Below are positions 19,533 through 54,881 of a stretch of 64,000 nucleotides of DNA, one piece after another (positions within the stretch are counted from its first letter, which is position 1; every line of letters starts with the position of its first letter). Origin of the DNA: Pseudolabrys sp. (GTDB lineage: Bacteria > Pseudomonadota > Alphaproteobacteria > Rhizobiales > Xanthobacteraceae); the NCBI GenBank assembly GCA_030684935.1, contig JAUXXH010000052.1:1-64000 (forward strand), in the 5' to 3' direction. The position numbers and the translations under genes are program-made. The notes below the pieces were generated by a model. That model saw only the letters and a program-made list of their open reading frames with translations. It was not told the origin of the DNA and searched no databases.

Positions 19533-19916
19533 ATGACTAGTTCCACAACACAACCGCCGCGCCTGCTCGTGGTGGAAGACGAATACCTGATCCGCATGTT
19601 GCTCGAGGACATGATCGCCGACCTCGGCTACGAGGTGTCGGCGTCCGTCGGCACGCTGGCGGATGCCACCGAGCAGGCCAGCAGCGGCACCTTCGACGCG
19701 GCCATTCTGGACGTGAATGTCGAGGGGCAGGAAGTATTTCCGGCCGCCGAGATCCTGGCGCAGCGCAACGTGCCTTTCATCTTCGTCACCGGCTATGGCG
19801 AAGGCGGCCTGCCGCCGGCCTATCGCGGCCGGCCGACGCTGCAGAAGCCGTTCCAGGCCGATCAGCTCAGGGACGCCCTCGCCGGCCTGCTCGCCGGCAG
19901 TCCGCAGGCGGCCTAG
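19533..19916 (+). CDS. Single-domain response regulator (receiver only)
   Basis: A 127-residue CheY-like receiver with no output domain. The acidic pocket E15/D16, phosphoacceptor D60 (AILDVNV), T86 (FVTGYGE) and K105 (LQKPF) are all present, so it should be phosphorylatable. It stands alone on the plus strand between pcm and surE, and its stop overlaps the surE stop in the shared tetramer CTAG (19913-19916). No histidine kinase is nearby. It may be a phosphate sink or a partner of a stress-response kinase. Confidence 0.9.
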
Positions 19917-20674
19917 CCGAACACCTCCGCCAGTTTCGTCATGAACGGCTCGTCCGTGAGGTCGAGCCGCAGCGGCGTCACCGAGATTTTCTTCTCGTTG
20001 AGCGCCGCCAGATCGCTGCCCAAGGCCGCGCCGGCATTGCCGCCGCGGCCGAAGGCGATCCAGAAATAGGGATTGCCGCGGCCGTCGTGACGCGGGTCGA
20101 TGCGCAGCAATTCCTGGTCGCGCTTGCCCTGCACCGTCACGGCGATGCCGGCAACATCGTCCGGCGCGCAGTCGGGAAAATTGACGTTGACCAGGACGTC
20201 GCGCGGCATGCCCTGCTTCATGACGCGGCGCACGATGTCGGGCGCGAACTTGACCGCGGTTTCCCAGAACGGCGCGTTCTTGCTGGCGAAGGCATAGGCC
20301 TGCGACAGCGCCAGCGACGGCACGCCCAGAACGGTGCCTTCCATGGCCGCGGCGACGGTGCCGGAATAGGTCACGTCCTCGGCGCAGTTGCGGCCGCGGT
20401 TGACGCCGGACAGCACCAGATCGGGCGGCTCCTTCATGATGTGGCGCACGCCCATGATGACGCAATCGGTCGGCGTGCCGCGCACCGCGAAATGCTTGTC
20501 GCCGACCTCGCGCAGCCGCAGCGGGTCGTTCAGCGACAGCGAATGCGACACGCCGGACTGGTCGGTCTCCGGCGCCACGATCCAGACATCGTCGGACAGC
20601 GCGCGGGCGATCATCTCGCAGGCGGCGAGGCCCGGCGCGTGAATGCCATCGTCATTGGTGACCAGAATGCGCAT
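19913..20674 (-). CDS. surE: 5'/3'-nucleotidase SurE
   Basis: Metal-dependent survival-protein nucleotidase (253 aa) that dephosphorylates nucleoside monophosphates. The N-terminal [15 protein letters not shown] gives the metal-binding Asp pair. [14 protein letters not shown] and [27 protein letters not shown] are the other active-site blocks. It is placed between serS and pcm as in many proteobacteria. It converges with the receiver gene, sharing the CTAG stop overlap. Confidence 0.96.
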
Positions 20675-20847: not shown

Positions 20848-22398
20848 TCACGCCGTCTTCTCGATCTTTTTCATCCCGCCCATATACGGCTGCAACACGT
20901 CCGGCACGGCGATCGCGCCGTCGTCCTGCTGATAGGTTTCCATCACCGCGACCAGCGCGCGGCCGACGGCGACGCCGGAGCCGTTGAGGGTGTGGACGAA
21001 GGCCGGCTTGCCGTCCTTGCCGCGATAGCGCGCGTTCATGCGCCGCGCCTGGAAGTCGCCGCACACCGAGCAGCTCGAAATTTCGCGGTACATGTTCTGA
21101 CCCGGCAACCAGACCTCGATGTCGTAGGTTTTCTGCGAGGCGAAGCCCATGTCGCCGGTGCACAGCGTCATGACGCGGTAGTGCAGGTCGAGCTTCTTCA
21201 GGACCTCCTCGGCGCAGGCCAGCATGCGCTCGTGTTCCTCGCGCGCTTTTCCCGGCGTCGTGATCGAGACCAGTTCGACCTTGGTGAACTGGTGCTGGCG
21301 GATCATGCCGCGCGTGTCGCGCCCGGCCGCGCCCGCTTCGGCGCGGAAGCACGGCGTGCAGGCGGTGTATCGGCGGGGCAGCGAGTCTTCGTCGACGATG
21401 GACTCGCGGACGAGGTTGGTGAGGGGCACCTCGGCGGTGGGGATGAGCCAGCGGCTATCTTCGAAAATGGACTCAAGCGCTGCATTCTCAGACAAATATT
21501 TAGCAAGTTCAAATTCGGTGTTAAACGAATTGACGCCAAACGAGTCTAGAAATTCATTGATTTTTTCACTTTTTTCACCAGCAACATTGGATGAGCCCAA
21601 TGTATTCTTAATCAACTCAAACATTTTTGCGCTGGCTTCATGAAACGCAACAACGGACTCAGTCCGACTTTTGAGGCGCGCTTGCTCTTCGGCCTGCTGC
21701 TTCCTTTGAGCCGGCGTCAAAGTCCCGGAGACTGACATAAACTGATCGTGCATAAATTTCGGTAATTGCGCGGTTCCAAACATCGCCTCATCCCGCACCA
21801 ACAACGGCGGATTGACTTCGGTATAGCCGTGCTGGTCGGTATGCAGATCCAGCATGAACTGCCCCAACGCGCGCTCCATCCGCGCCAGGCCCTTCTGCAA
21901 CACCACAAAGCGCGCGCCGGACAGTTTCGCCGCGAGTTCGAAGTCCATCATGCCGAGCCCGGCGCCGAGATCGAAATGCTCCTTCGGCGTGAAGGCGTAG
22001 TCGCGCTTCCGGCCGGACACATGGTGCTCGATATTGCCGTGCTCGTCGGCGCCGTCCGGCACATCGGCGGCCGGCAAGTTCGGTATTTGCGCCAGCTCCT
22101 TGTCGAGCTCATCGCCGAACTCTTTCGCCTCGGCCTCGAGGGCCGGCATGGTCTCCTTGAGCTTGGCTACTTCTGCCATCAGCGCCTGCGCCGTGGCGTC
22201 ATCCTTCTTCGCCTTGGCGGCGCCAATCTCCTTCGACGCCGCGTTGCGGCGCGCCTGCGCCTGCTCGGACGCCAGGATGGCGGCGCGGCGCTTTTCGTCG
22301 AGCGCGATCAGCTTTTCCGCCAGCGGCTCCAGCCCGCGCCGGGCGAGGCCCTTGTCGAAGGCAGCGGCGTTGTCGCGAATCCATTTGATGTCGTGCAT
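20848..22398 (-). CDS. serS: Seryl-tRNA synthetase with a large in-frame insertion
   Basis: Charges tRNA-Ser (516 aa; the bacterial family is usually ~430). The N-terminal coiled-coil arm (~30-105), motif 1 region ([11 protein letters not shown], ~191), serine-binding TAE loop (PTAEVPLTN, ~320), motif 2 (CFRAEAG...RGMIRQHQF, ~350-371) and motif 3 ([10 protein letters not shown], 471-480) are all intact. Between LPKF (~215) and RWLIPT (~316) normal enzymes have only ~10-15 residues; here there are ~100. The DNA of the insert core (21481-21660) has 67 G/C of 180 nt, far below the surroundings. The frame is open, so the product is probably functional. Confidence 0.93.
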
Positions 22399-22598: not shown

Positions 22599-23432
22599 CT
22601 ACTCCGCCGGCTTCGCGGGCGTCTCGGCGGCGTCGGCTTCGGCCGCGGCTTCCGCCGCCTTGGCGGTGACGTCGGCCTGCGCCTTCTTCTCGACCATGCG
22701 CACCGACCAGACCGAGCACTCGTAGAGGATCATCAGCGGAATCGCCAAAGACAGCTGGCTGATCACGTCCGGCGGCGTCAGCACCGCCGCCAGCACGAAG
22801 GCGCCGACGATGAAATAGCGCCGCTTGTCCTTGAGCTGCTGCGAGGTGATGACGCCGATGCGGCCGAGCAGCGTCAGGATCACCGGCAGCTGGAAGGCGA
22901 CGCCGAAGGCGAACACCAGCGTCATCATCAGCGACAGGTATTCGCCGACCTTCGGCAGCAGCGCGATGCTGGCGGCTTCCTCGCCGCCGGTCTGCTGCAT
23001 GCCGAGCGAGAACCGCACCAGCATCGGCATGACCAGGAAATAGACCACCGCCGAGCCGAGCGCGAAGAAGAACGGCGTCGCCACCAGATACGGCAGGAAG
23101 GCGTTGCGCTCGTGCTTGTAGAGGCCCGGCGCGACGAACATGTAGATCTGCCCGGCCACCACCGGGAACGACAGGAAGGCGGCGCCGAACATCGCCAGCT
23201 TCAACTGGGTAATGAAATACTCGAGCAGCGCGGTGTAGATGAATTTCGAGTTCTCCGCCCCGGCGATCCAGACGAAGGGCCAGACCAGGATGTTGTAGAT
23301 GTCCTTGGCGAAGAAGAAGCAGACCGCGAACATCACGCCGAACGCGATCACCGCCTTGATCAGCCGCGACCGCAGCTCGACCAGATGGTCCATCAACGGC
23401 GCCTTGGTGGCTTCGATGTCTTCCGTGCTCAC
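22599..23432 (-). CDS. tatC: Sec-independent translocase subunit TatC
   Basis: Polytopic inner-membrane receptor of the twin-arginine export system (277 aa, six helices). Conserved parts are [16 protein letters not shown] at the N-terminus, [24 protein letters not shown], and [17 protein letters not shown]. The C-terminal ~30 residues are an Ala/Glu-rich tail. The GTG start overlaps the tatB stop (GTGA at 23432-23429), so the two are translationally coupled. Confidence 0.97.
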
Positions 23433-24264: not shown

Positions 24265-24445
24265 CGGACTCACCCTCCGCAGCGACGGGCCTGTTCAGCG
24301 CGCGTCCCGCCTATGATTTGACAGAGAAACTAGGCCCCGGAAGCGGCAAAAACAAGGACTACCGGCGGCCCCTTTGCTGCATCAGGGACGGCGCAATGTC
24401 GCGCTAAGGGGCGGAAGTTGCTTAATTTTGGCCGCAGCACGGCCG

Positions 24446-24521
24446 CTCATTCCCGCGCAAGCGGGAATCCAGTTCTTGCTTTTAGCCTAAAGAGCTGGAT
24501 CCCCGCTTCCGCGGGGACGAA
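24446..24521. repeat. REP-like palindromic repeat (family C), copy 1
   Basis: Two hairpins point at each other: CATTCCCGCGCAAGCGGGAA then TCCAG on the left and CTGGATCCCCGCTTCCGCGG then GGACGA on the right. A near-identical element occurs at 54797-54876. It lies in the 294-bp gap between scpB and tatA, where I see no gene; the rest of the gap should carry any tat promoter. Confidence 0.85.
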
Positions 24522-24558
24522 CGGAGGATGCTGCTCCGCAGCGGCCGGCAGCCGGTGC

Positions 24559-42555: not shown

Positions 42556-45402
42556 CTACGCGCCCTTGAGCGCTTCCAGCGCCGCCGCGATCTTGACCTT
42601 GCGGCCTTCGGCCTCGGCGCGCTTTTCCTTCTCGCCCTCGATGATCTCTTCCGGCGCGTTGGCGACGAATTTCTCGTTCTTCAGCTTGGCGTCGACGCGG
42701 GCGATGTCGGCCTCGGCCTTGGTCAGTTCCTTGGCCAGCCGCGACCGCTCGGCGGCGATATCGATGACGCCGACCAGCGGCAGCGCCGCCACCTCGCCGC
42801 GCACCACCAACTGAACCGAACCGGCCGGCGCCGCGTCGGCCGAGGAGATTTCCGACACCCGCGCCAGCCGCTTGATGAATTCGGCCCAGCGCTGCGCCCG
42901 CGCCTGCGTTTCCGGCGACACACCGGCCAGCACCACCGGGATGGCGACGGCGACGTTCATCTCGGAGCGGATCGAGCGCACCGCGGTGATCAGGTCGATA
43001 ACCCAGCCGATCTCGGCTTCGGCGGCATCGTCGGCGAGGCCGTCGAGCACCGGCCAGTCGCTGAGCGCGAGCAGGTTCGACCGCTTCGGCCCCTGCTCGG
43101 CCGTCACCGCCCACAGCTCCTCGGTGATGAAGGGCATGAACGGATGCAGCAGCTTGAGGATTTCATCGAGCGCCCAGGCGGCCATGGCCCGCGTCTCGTC
43201 CTTGGCGGCGCCGTCGGGCCCGGTCAGCAGCGGCTTCGACAGTTCGACATACCAGTCGCAGTAGACGTTCCACACGAAGCGGTAGGCGCTGCCGGCGGCC
43301 TCGCTGAAGGCATAGGTCTCGAGCGCCCGGGTGATCTCGGCCGCGGCCCTGGCGGTTTCGTGCGCGATCCAGCGGTTGAGCGGCTCATTCGCCGACTTCG
43401 GATCGAAGCCCTCGACCCGCGCGGCGCCGTTGAATTCGACGAAGCGCGCCGCGTTCCAGAGCTTGGTGGCGAAGTTGCGGTTGTTCTCGACGTCCTGCGG
43501 CCCGAGCCGGATGTCGTGGCTCGGCGCGACGTTGCGCATCAGCGTGAAGCGCAGCGCATCGGCGCCGAACTCGTCGATGACGCCGAGCGGATCGACCACG
43601 TTGCCCTTGGACTTCGACATCTTGGCGCCGGAGGCATCGCGCACCAGCCGGTGGATGTAGATGTCGTGGAACGGAATCTCCTGCTTGAAGTGCAGGCCCA
43701 TCATCATCATGCGGGCGACCCAGAAGAAGATGATGTCGAAGCCGGTGACCAGCACCGAGGTCGGATAGAAGCGCTTGACCTCGGCCGTTTCCGCCGGCCA
43801 GCCGAGCGTCGAGAAGGGCCACAGTGCCGACGAGAACCAGGTGTCGAGCACGTCCTCGTCACGCCAAATGCCAATAACGCTCTCCTGTTGCCATTTCGTT
43901 AGACCTTCGCCGGCGCTACCGACGACTGCCACTTGCGAATTCGGATACTTCTTTTGCACCTCAGCAATCGCAGCCGCTTCGGATTCAGCAACAACAAAAT
44001 CATGCTGGGACTGATCAAACGTCCCACCCCGATGTGGAGCATTCAAGGCTGTTAGATCGACGACAAGTTGATCTTTCTCCGCGTTTTTTAAGAAATACCA
44101 TGCGGGGATCTGATGACCCCACCACAGCTGGCGCGAGATGCACCACGGCTGGATGTTTTCCATCCAGTTGAAATAGGTCGTTTCCCAGTTCTTCGGCACG
44201 AACTTCGTGCTGCCGTCGCGCACCGCGGCGATCGCCGGCTTCGCCAGTTCGGCAGCGTTGACGTACCACTGCTCGGTCAAATAGGGCTCGATGACGACGT
44301 TGGAGCGGTCGCCATGCGGCACCGCGTTGGTGACGGTCTCGATCTTGTCGAGCAGACCGAGCGCATCGAGATCGGCGACAATGCGCTTGCGCGCCTCGTA
44401 GCGGTCGAGCCCCCGATACTGCGGCGGGCAGTTCTCGTTCATCTTGGCTTCGGGCGTGAACAGATTGATCAAGCCGCCGTTGAGCTGCTTCTTGAAATAG
44501 TCCTTGTCGCGGTGCCGCGACCAGACCTCGAAGTCGTTGAAGTCATGCGCCGCGGTGATCTTGACTGCGCCGGAGCCCTTTTCCGGATCGGGATATTCAT
44601 CGGCGATGATCGGGATCAGGCGCTCGGCCAGTGGCAGCCGCACCAGTTTGCCGACCAGATGCTTGTAGCGTTCGTCATCGGGATGCACGGCGACGGCGCC
44701 GTCGCCCAGCATCGTCTCGGGCCGCGTGGTGGCGACGGAGATGAAGGTCGAGGGATCTTCCGCATTAAAGGCAACGCCATCGAGCGGATAGCGGAAGTGC
44801 CACATCTGCCCTTTGGCCTCGACCTGAAGAACCTCCAGATCGGAAATCGCCGTCAGCAGCTTGGGGTCCCAGTTGACCAGCCGCTTGTCCTTGTAGATCA
44901 GCCCTTCCTTGTAGAGCTGCACGAACACCTTGATGACGGCCTCGGACAGGCCTTCGTCCATGGTGAAGCGTTCGCGCGACCAGTCGCATGACGCGCCCAG
45001 CCGCTTGAGCTGGTTGTAGATGGTGCCGCCACTCTCGGCCTTCCATTCCCAGACTCGCTTGAGGAACGCCTCGCGCCCCATCTCCCGGCGTCCCGGCAGC
45101 TGCTGTTCCATCAACTGCCGCTCGACCACCATCTGGGTGGCGATGCCGGCATGATCGGTGCCCGGCTGCCACAGCACATCCTTGCCGCGCATGCGCTCGA
45201 ACCGGCACAGCACGTCCTGCAGCGTGTTGTTCAGCGCATGGCCCATATGCAGCGAGCCGGTGACGTTGGGCGGCGGAATGACGATAGAATAGGCCTCGGC
45301 CTGCGCGCGCTCGGGCCGGCCGGCCGTAAAGGCGCCCGCCTGTTCCCAGGTCCGGTAGATGCGGCCCTCGACTTCCGCGGGCTGATAGGTCTTGTCGATC
45401 AT
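42556..45402 (-). CDS. valS: Valyl-tRNA synthetase
   Basis: Class I synthetase charging tRNA-Val (948 aa). HIGH signature PPNVTGSLHMGHALNNTLQD, KMSKS loop GAKMSKSKGNVVDP, editing-domain block TTRPETMLGDGAVAVHPDD, and a C-terminal coiled-coil arm (LAKELTKAEADIARVDAKLK) are all present. The start MIDKTYQPAE is the family N-terminus. Residues ~435-514 between GHQIPAWY and RDEDVLDTWFSSALWPFS are poorly conserved and AT-shifted: 119 G/C in the 240 nt from 43861 to 44100. Neighbour popZ is conserved, but here an MFS gene lies between them. Confidence 0.96.
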   Translation of the reverse strand: MIDKTYQPAEVEGRIYRTWEQAGAFTAGRPERAQAEAYSIVIPPPNVTGSLHMGHALNNTLQDVLCRFERMRGKDVLWQPGTDHAGIATQMVVERQLMEQQLPGRREMGREAFLKRVWEWKAESGGTIYNQLKRLGASCDWSRERFTMDEGLSEAVIKVFVQLYKEGLIYKDKRLVNWDPKLLTAISDLEVLQVEAKGQMWHFRYPLDGVAFNAEDPSTFISVATTRPETMLGDGAVAVHPDDERYKHLVGKLVRLPLAERLIPIIADEYPDPEKGSGAVKITAAHDFNDFEVWSRHRDKDYFKKQLNGGLINLFTPEAKMNENCPPQYRGLDRYEARKRIVADLDALGLLDKIETVTNAVPHGDRSNVVIEPYLTEQWYVNAAELAKPAIAAVRDGSTKFVPKNWETTYFNWMENIQPWCISRQLWWGHQIPAWYFLKNAEKDQLVVDLTALNAPHRGGTFDQSQHDFVVAESEAAAIAEVQKKYPNSQVAVVGSAGEGLTKWQQESVIGIWRDEDVLDTWFSSALWPFSTLGWPAETAEVKRFYPTSVLVTGFDIIFFWVARMMMMGLHFKQEIPFHDIYIHRLVRDASGAKMSKSKGNVVDPLGVIDEFGADALRFTLMRNVAPSHDIRLGPQDVENNRNFATKLWNAARFVEFNGAARVEGFDPKSANEPLNRWIAHETARAAAEITRALETYAFSEAAGSAYRFVWNVYCDWYVELSKPLLTGPDGAAKDETRAMAAWALDEILKLLHPFMPFITEELWAVTAEQGPKRSNLLALSDWPVLDGLADDAAEAEIGWVIDLITAVRSIRSEMNVAVAIPVVLAGVSPETQARAQRWAEFIKRLARVSEISSADAAPAGSVQLVVRGEVAALPLVGVIDIAAERSRLAKELTKAEADIARVDAKLKNEKFVANAPEEIIEGEKEKRAEAEGRKVKIAAALEALKGA

Positions 45403-54787: not shown

Positions 54788-54796
54788 TATCTCCGC

Positions 54797-54876
54797 TCAT
54801 TCCCGCGCAAGCGGGAATCCAGAGCCGCGGATTCTGAAGTCTATGCTCCCTGGGTCCCCGCTTTCGCGGGGACGAG
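54797..54876. repeat. REP-like palindromic repeat (family C), copy 2
   Basis: CTCATTCCCGCGCAAGCGGG then AATCCAG, and CTGGGTCCCCGCTTTCGCGG then GGACGA, match the element at 24446-24521 arm for arm; only the connecting segment differs. It fills the gap between the convergent pncB and M24 genes, where it could act as a transcription barrier from both sides. Confidence 0.85.
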
Positions 54877-54881
54877 CGGGT

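What the first reader, a model, noticed from the sequence alone, without database searches (positions are those of the whole stretch)
21440..21750. AT-rich ~90-residue in-frame insertion inside the seryl-tRNA synthetase catalytic domain
SerS is 516 aa, against ~430 for the bacterial family. The extra residues lie between LPKF (~215) and RWLIPT (~316), just before the serine-binding TAE loop, where family members have a short linker. By hand count 21481-21660 contains 67 G/C in 180 nt (37%), while the flanking 60-nt lines are 60% or higher. The frame stays open and every catalytic motif is intact. The block looks foreign or recently gained, yet it sits in an essential single-copy enzyme. It could be a protein-coding mobile palindrome-like element, a domain swap by recombination, or a lineage-specific appendage altering tRNA or partner binding. 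valS shows a milder counterpart.
Basis: partly seen in the sequence, partly recalled or inferred. Interest (0 to 1): 0.75.

Follow-up and report, generated by a model that had tools for sequence, protein, structure and literature searches.

The report
Swappable helical cassette in seryl-tRNA synthetase
An essential, slow-evolving enzyme that loads serine onto tRNA carries, in this bacterium and many relatives, a small extra block at one fixed spot, and that block is unrelated between most of the species that have one, which is unexpected for such an enzyme and hints that something keeps selecting for change.

Summary
SerRS (20848-22398, minus, 516 aa) has a 102-aa linker (21448-21753) where the common form is 12 aa; it is the lowest-GC spot in the window. 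It is not an isolated insert. At the same position, of 29 same-genus SerRS genes read, 16 carry inserts of 42-102 aa, 10 a conserved 28-aa linker and 3 the 12-aa form. Of 27 pairs of long-insert SerRS with at least 85% body identity, 24 have unrelated inserts, including bodies 96-97% identical. Most inserts are AT-rich with the composition of coding sequence; pN is below pS in nine of nine homologous long pairs, but the window's own insert has no homologue. One insert family is predicted as a confident three-helix mini-domain. ValRS has a similar site; valS and serS are the two strongest GC3 outliers among 599 genes sampled from this genome. IleRS and one HisRS show AT-rich tracts too. I read it as a replaceable cassette in a permissive surface loop, perhaps diversified by an antagonist of tRNA synthetases; that driver is inferred, not shown.

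The parts
20848..22398 (-). serS, seryl-tRNA synthetase, 516 aa
   Evidence: TIGR00414 487.1 bits; Pfam Seryl_tRNA_N 1-109 and tRNA-synt_2b 313-489; PDB SerRS matches on both sides of the insert
21448..21753 (-). hypervariable linker, residues 216-317 (102 aa; common form 12 aa), between GTAQLPKF and LIPTAE
   Evidence: GC 0.448, GC3 0.48; comparison with relatives
21454..21735 (-). inserted core, residues 222-315, predicted helical (229-267, 274-286, 294-314) at low confidence
   Evidence: AlphaFold2 model, pLDDT 44-68 per 10-residue block over residues 221-320
43861..44094 (-). second hypervariable site: 78-aa AT-rich stretch in valS (valine--tRNA ligase) at a site of 31 aa in 12 of 19 genomes read
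   Evidence: GC 0.50, GC3 0.46; ValRS identity; strongest internal GC3 dip of 599 genes
19913..20674 (-). surE, downstream neighbour, marks the orthologous locus
   Evidence: similar sequence beside serS in 31 of 34 long-insert named loci; gene name by recall of the family
22599..23432 (-). tatC, upstream neighbour, marks the orthologous locus
   Evidence: similar sequence beside serS in 27 of 34 long-insert named loci; gene name by recall of the family

Best explanation
The segment is one allele of a replaceable, mostly helical mini-domain held at a single permissive surface loop of SerRS, between the motif-1 side and the serine-binding TxE loop. Steps and standing: (1) the loop takes 12 to about 100 residues without breaking the gene: shown by open, syntenic serS genes. 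(2) Inserts are gained, lost and replaced wholesale far faster than the enzyme body diverges: shown by unrelated inserts in bodies 93-97% identical. (3) While resident, an insert is kept as protein: supported for the few insert families with two or more members, untested for the window's own insert. (4) One insert family recurs in several bacterial families, so cassettes, or whole genes with them, move between lineages: inferred. (5) The force favouring novelty is escape from, or decoying of, something that binds tRNA synthetases (a phage protein, an interbacterial toxin or a toxin-antitoxin kinase), which would explain why ValRS, and in places IleRS and a HisRS, show similar tracts while most sampled genes do not: inferred, about 0.35. 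(6) AT-richness comes either from low-GC source DNA or from loss of GC-maintaining gene conversion where no homologous partner exists: open.
For: Linkers read in 29 of 36 same-genus genomes: 3 of 12 aa, 10 of 28 aa, 16 of 42-102 aa. 75 distinct inserts of at least 35 aa; mean GC3 deficit against the gene is 0.20, 0.24 and 0.31 for 32-49, 50-69 and 70-130 aa. Body identity 0.95 or more: 3 of 3 pairs unrelated; 0.90-0.95: 5 of 6; 0.85-0.90: 16 of 18. At least 46 changes between long and not-long on a tree of 201 SerRS bodies. The 51 AT-rich inserts pooled have GC1 .576, GC2 .387, GC3 .490 and Cys 0.1%, a coding pattern. pN .08-.31 against pS .42-.97 in 9 of 9 homologous long-insert pairs, which come from two families and are not independent; four short-linker pairs go the same way. 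Three helices with pLDDT 86, 96 and 93 in the middle blocks of L032's insert. valS and serS are first and second of 599 genes for internal GC3 dips, -0.50 and -0.49, mean -.076, sd .074. IleRS and HisRS tracts. Orthologous locus: tatC or surE beside 32 of 34 long-insert named loci.
Against: No antagonist, partner or donor was identified; phage, plasmid, viral-contig, Pfam, PHROG and PADLOC searches gave nothing convincing. The window's own insert has no homologue, so selection on it is untested, and its fold is predicted at low confidence. Divergence is raised next to the site also in control pairs with conserved linkers, so it is no proof of recombination tracts. Species with 12 aa, and with a stable conserved 28-aa linker, exist in the same genus. 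Presence of a long insert keeps some phylogenetic signal: 46 changes against 62.7 +- 3.1 in 30 label shuffles. In ValRS and IleRS part of the AT-rich tract is recognisable editing-domain sequence, which is not pure insertion.
Confidence: 0.42

Rival explanations
1. Permissive-loop junk: the loop tolerates any in-frame DNA; inserts arrive by accident, persist neutrally, and are lost or overwritten. No function and no antagonist.
For: 12-aa forms are common and intact. A dispersed palindromic repeat has landed in frame in L020's insert. Human SerRS insertion II in the catalytic domain, near the active site, is said to play a negligible role in aminoacylation (PMC10817482, passages read).
Against: pN well below pS in nine of nine homologous long-insert pairs; a confidently folded three-helix mini-domain in L032; near absence of Cys and a coding GC1>GC3>GC2 pattern in the AT-rich inserts; composition below the window's intergenic DNA (0.635); valS and serS lead 599 sampled genes.
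Confidence: 0.28
2. Docking or regulatory module: each insert binds a lineage-specific partner (tRNA-modification enzyme, ribosome factor, regulator) and coevolves with it.
For: Predicted helical appendage; SerRSs of eukaryotes and archaea use the catalytic domain or added segments to bind partners (PMC10817482, passages read).
Against: Unrelated inserts in SerRS bodies 96-97% identical seem too fast for a shared cellular partner; tatC and surE, not a new companion gene, flank serS in most named long-insert loci, though partner genes elsewhere were not sought.
Confidence: 0.15
3. Composition only, compatible with the others: the AT-richness does not mean foreign origin; a segment with no homologous partner in the population cannot undergo GC-biased gene conversion and decays toward the AT-biased mutational equilibrium.
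For: Codon usage in the AT-rich inserts is near uniform; 6 of the 10 members of the shared insert family A3 are at host GC; GC-biased conversion in bacteria is argued by PMC4450053 (abstract and outline read; PMC8153448 says in its abstract that it has not been observed, listing); no donor found.
Against: Four A3 members are AT-rich while six are not; GC3 is lowered for 10-20 codons upstream, as an imported tract would give.
Confidence: 0.4
4. Assembly or binning error.
For: The window's genome is in 59 contigs at 89.6% completeness.
Against: Same-site inserts occur in named isolates such as Ancylobacter moscoviensis 3C, A. defluvii VKM B-2789, Mycoplana azooxidifex DSM 100211 and Aquabacter sp. 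P-9; frames are open and the locus is syntenic.
Confidence: 0.02

Closest known systems
Segmentally variable genes (PMC387263, 2004)
   Same: A conserved gene with a long variable segment; that paper discusses aminoacyl-tRNA synthetases, with the less conserved insert of ProRS as example (passages read).
   Different: There the ProRS segment is a diverging domain similar to YbaK; here unrelated segments replace one another in near-identical enzymes.
Insertion II of higher-eukaryote cytosolic SerRS (G254-N261)
   Same: In the catalytic domain near the active site with little effect on aminoacylation (PMC10817482); that it is the same loop is my placement by recall of the sequence, not aligned here.
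   Different: 8 residues by its coordinates; here up to 102 residues with turnover between close species.
Rickettsia palindromic elements and REP/MITE-like repeats inserted in frame (recalled; only a search listing seen)
   Same: In-frame insertion into protein genes; L020's SerRS carries such a palindrome.
   Different: The window's insert has no inverted repeat and is unique in its genome.
Swapped specificity domains of restriction S-subunits and polymorphic toxin tips (recalled)
   Same: Low-GC variable block between conserved flanks, unrelated alleles at one place.
   Different: Those are conflict genes; this is an essential enzyme (one serS match in the own genome), and no specificity has been shown.

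Membership tests
Bacterial seryl-tRNA synthetase (TIGR00414) | Score over the curated cut-off with both domains present | tested here: met
   487.1 against 301.65 bits; PF02403 and PF00587
Palindromic or REP/MITE-type in-frame element | Inverted repeat arms | tested here: not met
   0 inverted repeat pairs in window 21440-21760 at minimum length 10
Palindromic or REP/MITE-type in-frame element | Several dispersed copies in the genome | tested here: not met
   Protein search of the own genome found only itself at E up to 10; the genome is 89.6% complete
Segmentally variable gene | Conserved gene with a long variable segment | tested here: met
Known protein domain (Pfam, PHROGs, PADLOC) | Insert reaches a family's curated cut-off or a convincing E-value | tested here: not met
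   75 inserts scanned at E up to 0.05: 22 Pfam, 18 PHROG and 2 PADLOC families, best E 1.4e-4 (VbhA, L032, 22.2 bits against a cut-off of 25.9), 0.0036 and 0.0046; RsbRD_N 0.003 for the window insert, below cut-off
Conflict-driven hypervariable target | Diversifying turnover between close relatives | tested here: met
   24 of 27 pairs at body identity 0.85 or more have unrelated inserts
Conflict-driven hypervariable target | An antagonist that binds the variable segment | not testable with these tools
   None identified; needs binding or infection tests
Intein | Splicing-block size and conserved terminal residues | not tested
   No dedicated intein search was run; at 102 aa it is shorter than known mini-inteins by recall

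The most novel reading that the evidence does not exclude
SerRS, ValRS and in places IleRS and HisRS of Hyphomicrobiales carry swappable allelic mini-domains kept diverse by an unknown agent that attacks tRNA synthetases, so that essential translation enzymes act as a hypervariable target layer, like a restriction specificity domain or a phage receptor but in the cytosol.
Probability: 0.28. Interest if true: 0.88.

Novelty: new variant of a known kind. Interest (0 to 1): 0.72.

Why it matters
Essential aminoacyl-tRNA synthetases are taken as slowly changing core genes. A site where the protein block is unrelated between enzymes 96-97% identical means either a hidden conflict over translation enzymes or an unusually permissive place for new protein domains to arise. 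Both can be tested, and the insert pool offers a natural library of small, apparently folded domains. It also warns against reading SerRS or ValRS length and GC alone as signs of a foreign gene, and against using these segments in phylogeny.

Tried and rejected
Rejected: palindromic element for this insert; known domain; RNA element (one sub-threshold Rfam hit, E 0.13, on the edge of the region); source in phages, plasmids or viral contigs (no convincing match; one plasmid row at E 6; only four inserts, the window's, L032, L148 and L112, were searched there singly, and the last two in phages only); Ser-rich autoregulatory insert as a general rule (mean Ser 6.2% over AT-rich inserts, body 4.5%; the window's insert is richer, 13 of 96 residues counted by eye); phage-carried SerRS as the vehicle (13 of the 14 viral-contig loci were read and have linkers of 11-24 aa; the linkers of the 23 phage records were not read). 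My first reading of raised divergence beside the insert as recombination tracts did not survive the control with conserved-linker pairs. BLAST matches running through the insert in G161, G106, G108 and G225 proved, by eye, to be different inserts of similar length. The two weak hits of the window insert in G146 and G228 lie in a 172-aa frame that reads as a single-stranded-DNA-binding protein (identity by recall). Two weak A3 matches in G102 and G261 (E 0.001 and 0.009) were not followed.

Full report
Observation. The window's serS (20848-22398, minus) encodes 516 aa and scores as serS. Residues 216-317 (21448-21753) lie between GTAQLPKF and LIPTAE. Pfam, NCBIfam and PDB matches flank it on both sides.

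Comparison. A readable linker came from 206 of 209 loci, with valS and other loci also in hand, 246 loci gave one, 233 distinct. The common form is 12 aa (such as AEDLFRTTDGRW). In the window's genus, probably Pseudolabrys (inferred because loci titled Pseudolabrys carry linkers identical to genus members), I read 29 of 36 genomes: 3 at 12 aa, 10 at 28 aa with conserved sequence and near-normal GC, 16 at 42-102 aa. The order draw holds no other member of that genus. Outside the order the open frames listed are mostly 423-450 aa by eye, with long inserts read in some (for example L181, L192, L194, L329, and L059 titled Lysobacterales), so long inserts look concentrated in Hyphomicrobiales. Only part of the class and phylum matches was fetched and the lists were cut, so no frequency is claimed.

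Turnover. Among 77 distinct long-insert SerRS, pairs with body identity of at least 0.85 number 27; 24 have unrelated inserts by shuffled alignment score (z below 3) and 3, all among three Microvirga, related ones. The sharpest cases are L114/L115 (97% body; 87 and 79 aa) and L003/L005/L007 (93-96%; 63, 71 and 58 aa). On a FastTree tree of 201 bodies at least 46 changes between long and not-long are needed; 30 label shuffles gave 62.7 +- 3.1, so there is much turnover but also some phylogenetic signal. I first took raised divergence beside the insert as recombination tracts, but conserved-linker control pairs show the same, so the exchange mechanism is open. GC3 is lower in the 20 codons upstream in carriers of AT-rich inserts (-0.10 and -0.06 in the first two bins of ten) and about equal just downstream (-0.01).

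What the inserts are. Of 75 distinct inserts, 51 are at least 0.08 below their gene in GC. Pooled, these have GC1 .576, GC2 .387, GC3 .490, against .671.428 and .848 in the body, near-uniform synonymous codon use and almost no Cys; the other 24 have GC3 .757. Where homologues exist, pN is below pS in 9 of 9 long-insert pairs, with synonymous sites saturated in five, and in four short-linker pairs; the nine come from two families, A3 (two subgroups) and Microvirga, and are not independent. Family A3 (10 members) occurs in the window's genus (L013, L017, L023), in coded families f14, f16, f29 and f49 of the order, and in named records up to a Micropepsaceae MAG (a different order, by recall); a profile search of 249 genomes gave six matches, four strong ones at the coordinates of serS and two weak ones not followed. 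Members L046, L047, L053, L151, L164 and L179 have host-like GC, while L013, L017, L023 and L032 are AT-rich. AlphaFold2 gives L032's insert three helices at pLDDT 86-96 in its central blocks, 65-77 at its edges; the window's insert is helical at 44-68. No Pfam, PHROG or PADLOC family is reached convincingly; the best, VbhA antitoxin at 1.4e-4 for L032, is below its cut-off and I treat it as chance. The window insert has no convincing relative in phages, plasmids (one row at E 6), viral contigs or 248 other genomes of the order.

Other genes. ValRS has a matching site: 31 aa in 12 of 19 genomes read, 47-49 in 2, 68-78 in 5 including the window (30 genomes searched, the rest not matched by my anchors). 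IleRS shows AT-rich, low-identity editing-region tracts in the own genome and G031, and a C-terminal one in G030, of six genomes compared. HisRS was met in one genome, G030, and has one. LeuRS and MetRS (six genomes searched) and the ThrRS-, ProRS- and AspRS-type loci of four genomes show no comparable dip, setting aside L279, L286, L291, L382 and L387, whose dips lie in what I read as 5' extensions of the open frame; ThrRS and ProRS are named by recall, the others by NCBIfam on one member each. In 844 kb of the own genome 599 genes passed the test; valS (-0.50) and serS (-0.49) are first and second against a mean of -.076 and sd .074; the next rows (-0.33 and weaker) are partly gene-calling artefacts by my reading, and one at -0.29 looks like AlaRS by recall. 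In 398 kb of G031, valS ranks first of 274; that sample was not random, since contigs known to hold synthetases were included, and the window itself was given. In ValRS and IleRS parts of the AT-rich tract are still recognisable editing-domain sequence, so there the process looks more like import of divergent segments than pure insertion.

Mechanism. Shown or supported: a permissive loop, extreme turnover, coding nature, purifying selection in the insert families that have homologues, and a second synthetase with a similar site. Inferred: movement between lineages, and an antagonist that makes novelty useful. The antagonist idea rests on the pattern (unrelated alleles, near-identical bodies, a few essential targets), not on any identified partner. 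Rivals are neutral tolerance, partner docking, and, for composition, loss of GC-biased conversion.

Literature. Ten searches (one search returned nothing) showed, in the listings seen, no report of such a site in bacterial SerRS in the open PMC library; subscription papers are not held. I read passages of PMC10817482, PMC387263 and PMC7159879 and the abstract and outline of PMC4450053.

Verdict. Real and general, not an artefact. It is a new variant of the segmentally variable gene, notable because the gene is essential and the swapping occurs between near-identical enzymes. The functional driver is unknown.

Noticed in passing
L020:2146-2227 (SerRS insert of G015); window 24443-24525 and 54791-54879: A dispersed palindromic repeat of about 75 nt, with 57 matches in G015 and 60 in the own genome (many places counted on both strands), sits in frame inside the SerRS insert of G015; two copies lie in the window.
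   Followed up: partly
window 43861-44094 (valS): A second AT-rich hypervariable stretch in ValRS, the strongest GC3 dip among 599 genes sampled.
   Followed up: partly
L277 (own-genome IleRS, contig C50), L272 (G031), L385 (HisRS of G030): AT-rich, low-identity tracts in IleRS editing regions and an AT-rich tract in one HisRS.
   Followed up: partly
phage records ON529850-ON529860 and CAKLQH020000002; L299-L311: Large phages, among them phages of the alphaproteobacterium Brevundimonas, encode their own SerRS; the viral-contig copies read have short linkers.
   Followed up: no
L262:816-3359 (own genome): A GC3 dip of -0.35 near the 3' end of a long gene that looks like DNA ligase LigA before its BRCT domain (identity by recall).
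   Followed up: no
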